Below, piece by piece: positions 40,111 through 45,425 of a stretch of 53,805 bases of DNA. Source of the stretch: Candidatus Eisenbacteria bacterium (GTDB lineage: Bacteria > Eisenbacteria > RBG-16-71-46 > JASEGR01); NCBI GenBank assembly GCA_030017955.1, contig JASEGR010000008.1, positions 1 to 53,805 on the forward strand, in the 5' to 3' direction. Each line of letters begins with the position of its first letter. Within the stretch, counting starts at the first letter, position 1. The notes under the pieces were generated by a model that ran no database searches, was not told the origin of the DNA, and was given only the letters and a program-made list of their open reading frames with translations. Position numbers and translations under genes: made by a program.

Positions 40111-40932
40111 ATGACCTCCAGAAAGATCCCGTTTCTCAAGATGGCAGGAGCCGGGAATGACTTCGTCGTGATAGACAATAGAAAGGGCGTCATCAAGAGG
40201 AGAAATCTCGCTGCAAGAAGGCTCTGCGACCGGAAGCTGATCGGCGCGGACGGCCTTCTTCTTCTCGAAAACACGGGTCGCCGCGGCCTCAAAATGCGTT
40301 ATTTCAACAGGGATGGAAGTGAAGCGGAAATGTGTGGAAACGGCGGGAGGTGTTTTGCACGGTTCATATCCATCGTAGCCCGGGGCACAAAAGAAGTCTG
40401 TTTTCAAGCCATTGACGGGCCTCACGAAGCGAAAGTGCAAAGAGCATCAGTTTCCCTGAAAATGTCAGACAGCCGCATGATCCGCGAAGACATGAGAGTC
40501 GAAGTAACCAGAAAGAAAATGGCCGGGAGTCTCATAAACACGGGCGTCCCGCACTTTGTCGTCCTGGTTGACAATGTCAGAACGATTGATGTGGCGGGGC
40601 TCGGCAGGACGCTGAGAAATCACACTTCGTTCAGACCTCACGGAACGAATGTGGATTTTGTCCAGAGGTTAGGGGGCCGGAAAATCAGGGTCCGAACCTA
40701 TGAGCGGGGAGTCGAGGCTGAGACCCGGGGATGCGGGACCGGTGCAGTTGCGGCGGCATTGGTAGCTTCAAGGGCATGGGGAATTCCGTCTCCGGTTAAA
40801 GTATTGACCGAAAGCGGAGTGTGGCTCGAAGCCGCGTTCAATGAGTCTGGTAAAACTTTTAATGAGATATGGTTACGCGGAGATGCTCAAGTATTATTTG
40901 AAGGGGAAGTCTTACCGCAATACATTGGTTGA
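40111..40932 (+). CDS. dapF: Diaminopimelate epimerase
   Basis: 273 residues. It interconverts LL- and meso-diaminopimelate without cofactor. Both active-site cysteines are present: EMCGNGGRCFARF and ETRGCGTGAVAAAL. Also seen: N-terminal KMAGAGNDFVVID, RYFNRDGSEAE and NTGVPHFV. ATG start. It opens a dapF-dapA-dapB block giving meso-DAP for lysine and peptidoglycan cross-links. Confidence 0.97.
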   Translation: MTSRKIPFLKMAGAGNDFVVIDNRKGVIKRRNLAARRLCDRKLIGADGLLLLENTGRRGLKMRYFNRDGSEAEMCGNGGRCFARFISIVARGTKEVCFQAIDGPHEAKVQRASVSLKMSDSRMIREDMRVEVTRKKMAGSLINTGVPHFVVLVDNVRTIDVAGLGRTLRNHTSFRPHGTNVDFVQRLGGRKIRVRTYERGVEAETRGCGTGAVAAALVASRAWGIPSPVKVLTESGVWLEAAFNESGKTFNEIWLRGDAQVLFEGEVLPQYIG

Positions 40933-40946
40933 AAGGAGGGAGTCAG

Positions 40947-41837
40947 ATGTTTGAAGGAGTCTTTGTGGCAAGCGTTACGCCTTTTAGAAAAGGCCAGGTT
41001 GACGAGGAGGCGTTTGCCTCTCACGTTGAGCGGCTCATCGAGGGCGGGGTTCAGGGAATTGTGCCTGCCGGCTGTACCGGCGAAGCTGCAACGCTTACTC
41101 TGGATGAGAAAAAGAGACTCTTCAAACTGACAAAGGAGATCTCTGGGGGCAGGGTGTCTGTTGTGGGCGGGAGCGGCACGAATGCGACCTCCACGTCGAT
41201 TGAACTTACAAGACTCGTCAAGGAATGCGGCCTCGACGGTGCGATGCTGATCACGCCATATTATAACAAGCCTACCCAGGAGGGGCTCTTCAGGCACTAC
41301 GAGGCAGTGGCGGAAGCAGTGAACATCCCGCTCGTGATCTATAATGTCCCGGGCAGGACAGGTGTGAACATACTTCCTGACACGGTTGCACGGCTCTCCG
41401 AAATCAAGAGCATCGTCGCAATAAAGGAGGCAAGCGGACTGCTCGACCAGGTAAGCGCGATCCTCTCGAAGTGCAGTATCACTGTTCTTTCGGGCGACGA
41501 TTCATTGACCTTGCCGATGCTGTCGATCGGCGCCAAGGGAGTGGTTTCTGTTACGGCAAACGTTGTCCCAGAAGATGTAGTTGAGATGGTAGAGAGTTTT
41601 CTTTCCGGAAAGGAAGCCCTGTCAAGAGAGAAGCATATGAAACTCTTTCCGCTTTCAAAGGCAATGTTTGTAGAAACCAACCCGTCGCCGGTCAAGAAGG
41701 CTCTTGAACTTCTGGGGTTGATTGAAGGCGACCTACGGCTTCCTCTTGTCCCGGTTGGAAAGGAAAGCGAACGGGTGATAAGAGAGGCGCTGACACGGCA
41801 CGGCCTCAAACCAAGAGAACCTCTGGGCGCCAGATAG
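40947..41837 (+). CDS. dapA: 4-hydroxy-tetrahydrodipicolinate synthase
   Basis: 296 residues. It condenses pyruvate with aspartate semialdehyde through a Schiff base. Seen: VASVTPFRKG, GCTGEAATLTLDEK, GGSGTNAT, TPYYNKPTQEG, YNVPGRTGVN with the catalytic Tyr, and AIKEASG with the Schiff-base Lys. ATG at 40947 chosen because AAGGAGGG lies 7 nt upstream; an in-frame TTG at 40929 lies before that site. It is 14 bp after dapF. Confidence 0.97.
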   Translation: MFEGVFVASVTPFRKGQVDEEAFASHVERLIEGGVQGIVPAGCTGEAATLTLDEKKRLFKLTKEISGGRVSVVGGSGTNATSTSIELTRLVKECGLDGAMLITPYYNKPTQEGLFRHYEAVAEAVNIPLVIYNVPGRTGVNILPDTVARLSEIKSIVAIKEASGLLDQVSAILSKCSITVLSGDDSLTLPMLSIGAKGVVSVTANVVPEDVVEMVESFLSGKEALSREKHMKLFPLSKAMFVETNPSPVKKALELLGLIEGDLRLPLVPVGKESERVIREALTRHGLKPREPLGAR

Positions 41838-41853
41838 GTGCGCGAAAGAGAGG

Positions 41854-42645
41854 ATGACTGAATTGAAAACCGAAGGCGCTGTCAGAATTGTCGTCTGCGG
41901 GGCAGGCGGAAAGATGGGCAGGAGGATCATCGAGATTGCCCGCCTCTCCGGTGAATTTGAGGTCGTTGGCGGGGTCGAAGCCAAGGACTACAAAGGAGAA
42001 CCCCCCCCCTGCGAGATTGTCGATGATCTGAGCCGGGTTGTGGAGCGGTGCCAGGTGGTCATTGAATTCACGAGTCCGGAAGCTTCTGCCATGCATGCCA
42101 AGATCTGCGGCAGAATTGGCAAGCCGATGGTAATCGGAACTACCGGGTTGGGGTCCCTCGAGATGAAAGAGATAGAGACTGCCGGCAAGAGTTCCCCGAT
42201 TTTTGTTTCTCCGAACATGAGCTGGGGAGTGAAAATACTCACGGAGGCCTCCCGTATGCTGGCAGCCAAGCTTGGTGATGGGTACGATATCGAGATTGTA
42301 GAGAAACATCACAGGGAGAAGAAGGACTCTCCGAGCGGGACTGCTCTAGGCATTGCAGAGGTAATCTGCGAGGCGAAGGGGTGGAGCTTTCCTGATGTCC
42401 TCAAGCACGGGAGGGAAGGGAAAGTCGGCGCAAGACCTGCCTCAGAGCTGGGAATCCACGCGGTGAGAGGCGGCACAATAGTCGGAGAACATGAGATCAT
42501 CTTTGCAGGAAAAGGTGAGAGGATAACTGTCTGCCACAAGGTGGAAAGCAGGGACTGTTTTGCGGCCGGGGCTCTGAAGGCCGCGAAATTCATAATCGGC
42601 AGAAGGCCGGGACGGTACACGATGCGCGACATGGAGCAGGCGTGA
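41854..42645 (+). CDS. dapB: 4-hydroxy-tetrahydrodipicolinate reductase
   Basis: 263 residues. It reduces HTPA with NAD(P)H, the step after DapA. Seen: the nucleotide loop VVCGAGGKMGRRI, IEFTSPEAS, IGTTG, SPNMSWGV, and the substrate motif EIVEKHHREKKDSPSGTA. ATG start 16 bp after dapA. Its stop overlaps the start of the next gene as GTGA. Confidence 0.97.
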   Translation: MTELKTEGAVRIVVCGAGGKMGRRIIEIARLSGEFEVVGGVEAKDYKGEPPPCEIVDDLSRVVERCQVVIEFTSPEASAMHAKICGRIGKPMVIGTTGLGSLEMKEIETAGKSSPIFVSPNMSWGVKILTEASRMLAAKLGDGYDIEIVEKHHREKKDSPSGTALGIAEVICEAKGWSFPDVLKHGREGKVGARPASELGIHAVRGGTIVGEHEIIFAGKGERITVCHKVESRDCFAAGALKAAKFIIGRRPGRYTMRDMEQA

Positions 42646-45425
42646 GATTAATCCGTGCAATTGCTTTCTCAATTACCCTCGCGGTCCTATTCCCTTCTCT
42701 TCTTTCTGCGCAGGGCATATTCGGAATGAACAAGGTCCAGTATTCGCGGCTGCGGTGGTCGGTGATCGAGACCCCGAGCGTGAATCTGCATTTCTATCCT
42801 GAAGAACGTGAGCTCGCCTACTTCGCGGCCCAGGAGGCCGAATCTATCTGCGTCGAGTACCAGAGACGATTCAATTTCAAACCCCCGGGCAGGATTCCGC
42901 TCATCGTCTACAGCTCTCATCATTACATGGAGCAAACGAACGTCATTCCTTTCCTGATTCCCGAGGAAGTTGGCGGGCTTACCGAACTCATCAGAGGAAG
43001 GGTGCTTGTCCCTCACACCGGGTCATACTACCGGTTCATCAAGGTACTGAGACATGAACTTGTTCACGCGTTCATGCTTGAGAAACTTGATTTCGTTCTC
43101 AAAAAGCACAAGACCACCCGCTATGCGTTTCCCCCTCTCTGGTTCTCTGAAGGACTTGCGGAAATCTGGTCCGGGCCGTGGGATTCCGAAGCGGACATGA
43201 TTCTTGGGGATGCTGTTCTTACAGGCCGGCTTGTCCCGGTTGGAGAACTCTGGAAGATATCGGGGAGTCTTCTTCTCTACAAAGAGGGACATTCATTCCT
43301 TCTGTTCCTTACTGAGAAGTACGGGGAAAATTGCATACTGGACATAATGGACAACTGGTGGAGGAAGGAAAGGTTTGAGGACGTCATAAGATTTGTTACG
43401 GGAAGCGACCTTTCGGTCCTCAATAGAGAATGGGTTCAGGAGCTGAGAAGAAGATACTACCCTCTTATTGGAGACCGCAAATCCCTGGAGGAAGTGGGTG
43501 AGAGACTCACCTCATCCGGGACGATCAACATCCGGCCGTACTGTTTCAATCAGGATGGCGAGTCGAAAGACGAAGAGTTCGTCTATCTTTCAAACGAGAA
43601 AGGATACTCAGACATCAACGAGCGCAAGTTGAGCTCCTCAAGCCAGAAGTCCCGGAGATTGGTGAAAAGCGGGTTCTCCAGCGGCTTCGAATCACTTCAT
43701 CCTTTTCGGAGCAGGCTTTCCGTGAACTCGAAAGAAGAGCTGGCTTTTGTCTCGAAAAGCGGAGGGAATGATGTCCTGAACATCCTCGACATCAAATCGG
43801 GAAAGGTCCTCAAGAAGTTCGAGTTTCCTTCACTTGTGTCCCTGTCTTCCCCATCCTGGTCGCCGGACAGAACAAAAATAGTATTCAGCGGCGCCACCAT
43901 GGCCGGGAAAAGCGATCTATACCTTGTCGAGATCCCGGAAGGCAAATCGACCCAGCTCACGGACGACCCTTTTGACGACCGGGACCCGGACTGGTCACCG
44001 GCAAGAGATGAAGTAGTTTTCTCGTCAGACAGAGGTGCCGACGGCAAGGCGGGCTGTTCGAATCTCTTTGTGCTCAGCGTTGCATCGGGCAAAATTCTCC
44101 AGCTTACCGCGGGACCCTATCATGACTACGATCCATCGTGGAACCCTGACGGAGAGCGGGTCTGCTTCAGATCTGACCGGGACGGACAGTTTGAGCTGTA
44201 TGTCGTCTCCAGGGACGGCAGCTATGCAAGAGCCACGGCACTTCTTTCATCACCATTTCATCCCGACTGGGAACCGTCCGGGAATGGGCTTCTGTTCTCC
44301 GGCTACGAAGGAAGGGAGTTTCACATATACAGGATAGACCTGAAAGACTCACTCGCCTGGCAGAGCGGAGAAGCAAGACCCTACCATCAGTCCTGGACTC
44401 CGGGCTACAAGTCGACGACAAACTACCGCGTCAGACCGTACAGAAGAAAGTTTGGGCTGGATGCGGCGCAAACAGCAGTTGCTTACGACCCGGATTTCGG
44501 GAGCGGCGGACTCGGACAGCTCGCCCTGACAGACGTCCTTGGAAATGAGCAGCTTTATTTTCTTGTATCAAGCGAAGCGATGTTCGGGGGTGACTTCTTT
44601 GACTACTTCGACGTCGGCATGACCTATCTCAATCTTTCGAAAAGACTCAATTACGGCCTGGGAGTCTTCAGACTTACCCGGCTCTACGATGAGGAGCTTG
44701 ACGTTGTGAGAAGAGAGGAGAGGGCGGGCGGGCTTCTCATAACGAGTTATCCATTTTCAAAATTCCAGAGACTGGACGGGACAGCTGTCTTGAGAAATGT
44801 CGAAAAGCATCTCTACCGTTCAGGCAAAGTCGAGGACACGGTTCTCTCTTCACTTTATCTCTCTCTTGTCAGGGACACCGGCTTTTGGACTGCCTCAGGG
44901 ATAAGCAGCGGTCTCAGATTCTATCTGACTTTGGGTGCAACGAGAGATCTGAAGAGGGTGGATGGGAATTCCCTGAGCCTTCTTTTTGACGCACGGAAAT
45001 ACACAAAGCTCTTCAGGGGCGGCGTGGTAGCAGCAAGGGTCTGCGGCAGAACGAGCGTAGGGAAGGAACCTCAGCGGTACTTTCTCGGCGGCAGCGGCAC
45101 GCTGAGAGGATTCGAGAGGAGGGCACTCTCCGGCACAAGGGCTTTTCTTGGTAATCTAGAGATAAGGTTTCCACTCATTGATAAACTCATTTTCTCTCTG
45201 CCGATGGGCTCGCTCGAATTCCCGACCCTGCGGGGCGCCATTTTCACCGATTGGGCGACGGCAGGAGATACGGCTCTTCAGGAACCGGTAGGCAGCACCG
45301 GGGTCGGCGTATTCCTGGGGAGCGGATACCTGCCTGTCATAAGAATAGACTTTGTCAGGCGTATATACGGCGGTAGAATCGAGCCCCGGACTTATTCTGA
45401 ATTTTCAGTAGGATGGAATTTCTGA
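42642..45425 (+). CDS. Gluzincin protease / TolB-like propeller / outer-membrane barrel fusion
   Basis: 927 residues. Signal peptide at 1-23 (AIAFSITLAVLFPSLLSA), then a peptidase-MA-type domain with HELVH (His138, Glu139, His142) and WFSEGLAE (Glu170 as likely third ligand). Residues about 360-590 are TolB/PD40 propeller blades (SPSWSPDRTKIVFSG, DRDPDWSPARDEVVFSSDR, DYDPSWNPDGERVCFRSDR). From about 630 the protein resembles a BamA/D15 surface-antigen barrel, with YFLGGSGTLRGFERRALSG and LGNLEIRFPL, and ends in Phe, as outer-membrane barrels do. Function is unknown; an outer-membrane-tethered protease or assembly factor is inferred. GTG start overlaps dapB. Confidence 0.85.
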   Translation: MRLIRAIAFSITLAVLFPSLLSAQGIFGMNKVQYSRLRWSVIETPSVNLHFYPEERELAYFAAQEAESICVEYQRRFNFKPPGRIPLIVYSSHHYMEQTNVIPFLIPEEVGGLTELIRGRVLVPHTGSYYRFIKVLRHELVHAFMLEKLDFVLKKHKTTRYAFPPLWFSEGLAEIWSGPWDSEADMILGDAVLTGRLVPVGELWKISGSLLLYKEGHSFLLFLTEKYGENCILDIMDNWWRKERFEDVIRFVTGSDLSVLNREWVQELRRRYYPLIGDRKSLEEVGERLTSSGTINIRPYCFNQDGESKDEEFVYLSNEKGYSDINERKLSSSSQKSRRLVKSGFSSGFESLHPFRSRLSVNSKEELAFVSKSGGNDVLNILDIKSGKVLKKFEFPSLVSLSSPSWSPDRTKIVFSGATMAGKSDLYLVEIPEGKSTQLTDDPFDDRDPDWSPARDEVVFSSDRGADGKAGCSNLFVLSVASGKILQLTAGPYHDYDPSWNPDGERVCFRSDRDGQFELYVVSRDGSYARATALLSSPFHPDWEPSGNGLLFSGYEGREFHIYRIDLKDSLAWQSGEARPYHQSWTPGYKSTTNYRVRPYRRKFGLDAAQTAVAYDPDFGSGGLGQLALTDVLGNEQLYFLVSSEAMFGGDFFDYFDVGMTYLNLSKRLNYGLGVFRLTRLYDEELDVVRREERAGGLLITSYPFSKFQRLDGTAVLRNVEKHLYRSGKVEDTVLSSLYLSLVRDTGFWTASGISSGLRFYLTLGATRDLKRVDGNSLSLLFDARKYTKLFRGGVVAARVCGRTSVGKEPQRYFLGGSGTLRGFERRALSGTRAFLGNLEIRFPLIDKLIFSLPMGSLEFPTLRGAIFTDWATAGDTALQEPVGSTGVGVFLGSGYLPVIRIDFVRRIYGGRIEPRTYSEFSVGWNF

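What the first reader, a model, noticed from the sequence alone, without database searches (positions are those of the whole stretch)
42642..45425. Protease, propeller and outer-membrane barrel in a single polypeptide
A HELVH/SEGLAE gluzincin, TolB-like blades and a BamA-like barrel with GGSGTLRG and terminal Phe form one 927-residue protein. This would put a protease and a protein-binding propeller on the periplasmic face of a pore. A self-contained outer-membrane quality-control or processing machine is possible and, to my knowledge, not well described.
Basis: partly seen in the sequence, partly recalled or inferred. Interest (0 to 1): 0.75.

Follow-up and report, generated by a model that had tools for sequence, protein, structure and literature searches.

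The report
Protease–propeller–barrel outer-membrane protein family
One bacterial protein joins a zinc protease, a TolB-like propeller and an outer-membrane barrel; it is a real, ancient family found in every genome examined of two poorly studied phyla, probably an uncharacterised part of how these bacteria build or police their outer membrane.

Summary
ORF 42642-45425 (+) encodes a 927-residue protein with a signal-peptide-like N-terminus, a gluzincin-type peptidase domain (H138-E139-x2-H142 and E170), a TolB-like propeller and a POTRA-less Omp85 barrel. All three parts are supported by family profiles. A barrel-only model, of modest confidence, matches BamA/TamA structures.

It is not a one-off fusion. 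Members occur in 47/47 genomes of the window's phylum (Eisenbacteria) and 82/82 of a second phylum. They form two ancient paralogues (here FUS1, the finding, and FUS2), and the four catalytic/zinc residues are invariant in all 69 fusions checked. In part of the phylum FUS2 follows TamA and TamB in one gene cluster; FUS1 usually neighbours a propeller lipoprotein, though not in this genome.

Closest description: the uncharacterised WD40-Omp85 subfamily (Heinz & Lithgow 2014), not described there with an N-terminal peptidase. Best reading: an outer-membrane-anchored zinc peptidase with its working domains in the periplasm, serving outer-membrane protein assembly or quality control. The architecture is near certain; the function is inferred. 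The simple idea that it replaces BepA-type M48 proteases was tested and failed. New variant of a known kind.

The parts
42642..45425 (+). FUS1: protease-propeller-Omp85 barrel fusion, 927 aa (GTG start, TGA stop)
42642..42710 (+). signal-peptide-like N-terminus, residues about 1-23 (VRLIRAIAFSITLAVLFPSLLSA|QG), no lipobox
   Evidence: sequence itself; predicted helix 2-22; no signal-peptide program was available
42720..42743 (+). family signature FGxNKVQY just after the signal peptide, residues 27-34
   Evidence: alignments A1/A2: G28, N30, K31, Y34 invariant
42720..43511 (+). gluzincin-type metallopeptidase domain, residues about 27-290
   Evidence: Pfam Peptidase_MA_2, flagellinolysin-like, M9 collagenase profile hit
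43053..43067 (+). HELVH, residues 138-142 (zinc ligands H138 and H142, catalytic base E139)
   Evidence: invariant in 33 FUS1, 36 FUS2 and Salinibacter
43134..43163 (+). PLWFSEGLAE, residues 165-174, third zinc ligand E170 (28 residues after H142)
   Evidence: E170, G171 and W167 invariant in 69 fusions plus Salinibacter; E174 varies in FUS1
43527..44366 (+). TolB-like beta-propeller, residues about 296-575, about six blades
   Evidence: PD40, TIGR02800 below cut-off, TolB structures, strand pattern in the best part of the full model
44430..45422 (+). Omp85-type barrel, residues about 597-927, no POTRA
   Evidence: Pfam PF01103, model, Foldseek to BamA/TamA
45087..45110 (+). GGSGTLRG, residues 816-823, the Omp85 loop motif ((V/L)RG(F/Y))
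   Evidence: G816, G817 and G823 90-100% conserved in A2
45411..45422 (+). C-terminal GWNF, aromatic last residue
   Evidence: all FUS1 rows checked end in F or Y
40111..42645 (+). upstream dapF-dapA-dapB; dapB overlaps FUS1 by 4 nt, so probably one transcript
   Evidence: the same neighbours in L016, L018, L019, L024, L025, L026

Best explanation
FUS1 is an outer-membrane-anchored zinc metallopeptidase. It is exported by Sec, the Omp85-type barrel sits in the outer membrane, and the N-terminal peptidase and propeller stay in the periplasm. The propeller binds a partner or substrate, as TolB and BamB do, and the peptidase cleaves proteins on their way to or stuck at the outer membrane, for maturation or removal; the barrel anchors the enzyme there and may offer a seam for substrate strands. 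Shown: the three domains, the intact and invariant active site, near-universal presence in two phyla, an ancient FUS1/FUS2 duplication, and linkage of the paralogue to TamA-TamB in one clade. Inferred: topology, proteolytic activity, substrate, and the role in outer-membrane assembly or quality control.
For: Three-domain architecture. Active-site residues 100% conserved in 69 fusions. Present in 47/47 and 82/82 genomes of two phyla. FUS1 and FUS2 each group across both phyla with strong support, so the duplication is old. In 15 of 26 FUS2 loci of this phylum, including this genome, the order is TamA-TamB-FUS2, usually followed by UvrD (L058 shows TamB only, at the start of the stretch); Pfam confirms POTRA+Omp85 and TamB in L011. 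A lipoprotein with FN3 and propeller repeats lies next to FUS1 in about 28 of the 31 genomes that have it full length, and is missing in the genomes that lack FUS1 (G005, G034, G037). A canonical 5-POTRA BamA is also in the genome, so FUS1 is additional to BAM. In PlpD, another Omp85 with an N-terminal enzyme, that enzyme stays in the periplasm (PMC11116518).
Against: No experiment exists. FUS1 itself is not next to TAM genes; in this genome it follows lysine/DAP biosynthesis genes. The TAM link belongs to FUS2 and to one clade only; 11 other FUS2 loci in the phylum and the ten fetched from the second phylum lack it at the sensitivity used. The lipoprotein neighbour was not found full length in the window's own genome, nor in G015 or G023. 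M48 (BepA-type) proteases are present in 25 of 26 good relatives, so FUS1 does not simply replace BepA.
Confidence: 0.5

Rival explanations
1. Surface or secreted protease: the barrel translocates the peptidase-propeller part to the cell surface (as once proposed for PlpD), where it digests external protein or processes surface proteins.
For: Omp85/TpsB barrels can translocate proteins (PMC4104836). The protease domain is nearest to M9 collagenases and flagellinolysin, which act outside the cell. A Salinibacter plasmid protein has the protease-propeller part with no barrel, next to a serine carboxypeptidase gene.
Against: Present in every genome of two phyla as conserved paralogues, which suits a housekeeping role better than an accessory exoenzyme. 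The PlpD enzyme domain was shown to stay periplasmic. FUS2 lies with TAM genes. A folded domain of about 550 residues through a 16-strand barrel is hard to picture.
Confidence: 0.2
2. Dedicated processing peptidase for a specific partner, for example the neighbouring NPLDP-type lipoprotein or one class of outer-membrane proteins, rather than general quality control.
For: The FN3/propeller lipoprotein lies next to FUS1 in most genomes of the phylum, on either strand, and is missing where FUS1 is missing (Fisher p 0.03 in 26 good genomes by my reading of the tables).
Against: The lipoprotein was not found full length in the window's genome, so it cannot be an obligatory substrate. Neighbourhood is not proof of interaction.
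Confidence: 0.2
3. The peptidase domain is a structural or binding domain that no longer cleaves, and the protein is an assembly factor like a BamA-BamB fusion.
For: Heinz and Lithgow likened WD40-Omp85 to a BamA-BamB fusion (PMC4104836).
Against: H138, E139, H142 and E170 never vary in 69 fusions of two phyla; an inactive domain would be expected to lose E139 somewhere.
Confidence: 0.08

Closest known systems
WD40-Omp85 subfamily of the Omp85/TpsB superfamily (Heinz & Lithgow 2014, PMC4104836)
   Same: TolB-like propeller directly before an Omp85 barrel, no POTRA
   Different: Described with an N-terminal WD40 domain only in the text read; no N-terminal metallopeptidase mentioned (its supplementary tables could not be read). 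Function never tested (PMC11116518).
PlpD / patatin-like Omp85
   Same: N-terminal enzyme, C-terminal Omp85 barrel; enzyme in the periplasm
   Different: Lipase instead of protease, has a POTRA, no propeller
BepA (M48 metallopeptidase with TPR, E. coli; own knowledge)
   Same: A periplasmic zinc peptidase acting on outer-membrane assembly intermediates is the role proposed here
   Different: Different peptidase family, TPR instead of propeller, not membrane-embedded; M48 genes coexist with FUS1 in relatives
TAM (TamA-TamB)
   Same: The paralogue FUS2 sits directly behind tamA-tamB in one clade, including this genome
   Different: TamA has POTRAs and no enzyme; known TAM has no peptidase
Peptidase_MA_2 / M9 collagenase / flagellinolysin
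   Same: HExxH with a downstream EGxAE and Tyr-x2-Gly, aligned in the same positions
   Different: Those are soluble secreted or filament-borne proteins without a barrel

Membership tests
Omp85 superfamily | 16-stranded barrel matching the family profile | tested here: met
   PF01103 over cut-off; 18 of 25 members match; model of about 16 strands matches BamA/TamA/Sam50, with TM only 0.5-0.6 on a modest model
Omp85 superfamily | conserved (V/L)RG(F/Y) loop motif and aromatic C-terminus | tested here: met
   GGSGTLRGF at 816-824, G823 nearly invariant; all FUS1 rows end in F/Y
BamA / TamA | POTRA domains before the barrel | tested here: not met
   no POTRA match in the protein; the genome's POTRA proteins are other genes
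WD40-Omp85 subfamily | TolB-like propeller directly N-terminal to the barrel, no POTRA | tested here: met
WD40-Omp85 subfamily | clusters with the named 2014 sequences | not testable with these tools
   supplementary tables with accessions could not be read
TolB (Tol-Pal) | TIGR02800 equivalog score | tested here: not met
   119 bits against a cut-off of 343
gluzincin metallopeptidases (Peptidase_MA_2) | HExxH plus downstream Glu ligand | tested here: met
   Pfam just over cut-off; H138, E139, H142, E170 invariant
gluzincin metallopeptidases (Peptidase_MA_2) | zinc binding and proteolysis | not testable with these tools
   needs biochemistry
M9 collagenase | significant profile match across the catalytic domain | tested here: inconclusive
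   E 8e-4, about 117 residues only
PlpD type (patatin-Omp85) | patatin domain | tested here: not met
   no patatin match

The most novel reading that the evidence does not exclude
A built-in proteolytic arm of outer-membrane biogenesis: two ancient barrel-anchored proteases, one working with TAM and one with a lipoprotein propeller, core to at least two phyla and unknown from model diderms.
Probability: 0.35. Interest if true: 0.8.

Novelty: new variant of a known kind. Interest (0 to 1): 0.55.

Why it matters
Omp85 proteins are the central machines of outer-membrane building, and enzyme-carrying members are barely understood. A peptidase-carrying member that is universal in two phyla, duplicated since before they split, and linked in one paralogue to TAM would suggest that some diderm bacteria tether proteolysis to outer-membrane assembly. 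The Peptidase_MA_2 family was not found in any of 14 well-known control genomes, so model organisms would not have revealed it.

Tried and rejected
BepA replacement: the window genome has no M48 peptidase match, but 25 of 26 good relatives do, so the idea fails for the group. Sole or primary BamA: rejected, a 5-POTRA BamA-like gene exists. TolB proper: rejected by score. Full-length structure from a 3-row alignment: too poor to use; the tool admits only sequences from certain sources, so a deep alignment could not be used. Relatives in viral contigs: none. Plasmids: only partial matches; the best, Salinibacter, lacks the barrel. Promoter/terminator and repeat scans gave nothing above chance or of use. 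The minus strand of the locus has no long competing gene. Literature searches for the triple fusion found none, within an open-access library only.

Full report
What is there. The reading frame 42642-45425 on the + strand is intact and encodes 927 residues. It begins with a GTG that overlaps the stop codon of dapB by four bases, behind dapF and dapA, and is followed by proS. The N-terminus looks like a signal peptide without a lipobox. HELVH lies at 138-142, SEGLAE at 169-174 and GGSGTLRG at 816-823.

Domains. Pfam finds Peptidase_MA_2, PD40 repeats and Omp85, the first only just above its cut-off. The family profile makes the case firmer: built from 25 relatives, it matches TolB structures, M9 collagenase around the active site and an Omp85 barrel, each in the expected part. 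With the protease part alone, M9 collagenases are reached at E 8e-4, with HE-x2-H, EGxAE and Tyr-x2-Gly aligned. The full-length AlphaFold2 model from a 3-row alignment was not usable (pLDDT 47.5), although it drew propeller strands with fair confidence. A barrel-only model (pLDDT 60.8) has about 16 strands and matches BamA of F. nucleatum, D. radiodurans and E. coli, TamA and Sam50, with probability 1.00 and TM 0.5-0.6. There is no POTRA.

Spread. Every one of 47 genomes held of the window's phylum has a match, 26 of 26 good ones. The group is Candidatus Eisenbacteria/Eiseniibacteriota, judging by L009. By my reading of that table, 24 of the 26 good genomes have a FUS1-type gene (G005 and G034 do not) and practically all have FUS2. 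The phylum of L010's genome is a different one, since none of its genomes carries a handle of the first set; there 82 of 82 genomes match at E 1e-80 or better. The 14 control genomes have no Peptidase_MA_2 at all.

Two paralogues. A tree of 70 sequences places FUS1 of both phyla together (support 100) and FUS2 of both together, with the Salinibacter protein on the FUS2 side on a very long branch of uncertain place. The duplication is therefore older than the split of the two phyla, unless there was transfer between them. H138, E139, H142 and E170 are identical in all 33 FUS1 and 36 FUS2 and in Salinibacter. A few genomes have a further, more distant copy (e.g. G035:C9, G046:C25).

Neighbours. 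FUS2 of the window's genome (L011) follows a 3-POTRA Omp85 gene and a TamB gene (Pfam). The same order stands in 15 FUS2 loci of families f1, f6 and f8, which form one clade (one, L058, shows TamB only because the stretch begins there); 11 FUS2 loci of the other families and the ten fetched from the second phylum do not show it at the sensitivity used. FUS1 follows dapFAB in one clade that includes the window. Over most of the phylum FUS1 adjoins a lipoprotein (invariant Cys, NPLDPxN motif, FN3-like part and NHL-type propeller), on the same or the opposite strand, and in several a PEGA-domain protein. Some second-phylum loci (L079, L080) show the same neighbours weakly. The lipoprotein is missing in genomes without FUS1, but also full length in the window's own genome, G015 and G023. 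The association has p 0.03 in 26 genomes that are not independent.

How it probably works. The signal peptide, N-terminal position and an even-stranded barrel place peptidase and propeller in the periplasm; in PlpD this was shown by experiment (PMC11116518). An invariant active site argues for catalysis. Universal presence and the TAM link of the paralogue argue for outer-membrane biogenesis. The most likely job is cleavage of outer-membrane-bound proteins, for removal of stalled ones or for maturation, with the propeller as the binding platform. Topology, activity, substrate and partner are all inferred. The simple version, that it stands in for BepA, was tested and fails, because relatives keep M48 peptidases.

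Known or new. Heinz and Lithgow (PMC4104836) defined WD40-Omp85 and described it as reminiscent of a BamA-BamB fusion; the 2024 PlpD paper still lists WD40-like Omp85 as uncharacterised. The 2014 paper's 'metalloprotease' Omp85 class rests on PF00149, which to my knowledge is a calcineurin-like phosphoesterase family and not this domain. No paper found describes the triple fusion, and no NCBIfam model covers it. It is a new variant of a known kind: membership in Omp85 and the propeller-barrel layout are met; BamA/TamA, TolB and PlpD membership are not.

Noticed in passing
L011:1309-10288 (G000:C14): TamA-like, TamB-like and FUS2 genes in a row in the window's own genome, followed by UvrD; the same order in 15 loci of the phylum.
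   Followed up: partly
L009:8561-9979, L016:10906-12324 and relatives: Lipoprotein family with invariant NPLDPxN after the Cys, an FN3-like part and NHL-type propeller, nearly always next to FUS1.
   Followed up: partly
L042:3938-5836: Salinibacter ruber plasmid pSR116 carries a 633-aa protease-propeller protein with the FGKNK signature and intact active site but no barrel.
   Followed up: partly
L012:3355-6754: FUS2 of G006 is split over two overlapping frames, either a sequencing error or a decaying copy.
   Followed up: no
G000, whole genome: No M48 peptidase found although 37 of 39 genomes searched have one; could be real loss or a gap in the assembly.
   Followed up: no
window:39077-40102: Big_5 (bacterial Ig-like) domain protein with a lipoprotein-like N-terminus, conserved upstream of dapF in several relatives.
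   Followed up: no
G000:C22:11750-12199: A third POTRA protein (open frame of 577 aa) besides BamA and TamA.
   Followed up: no
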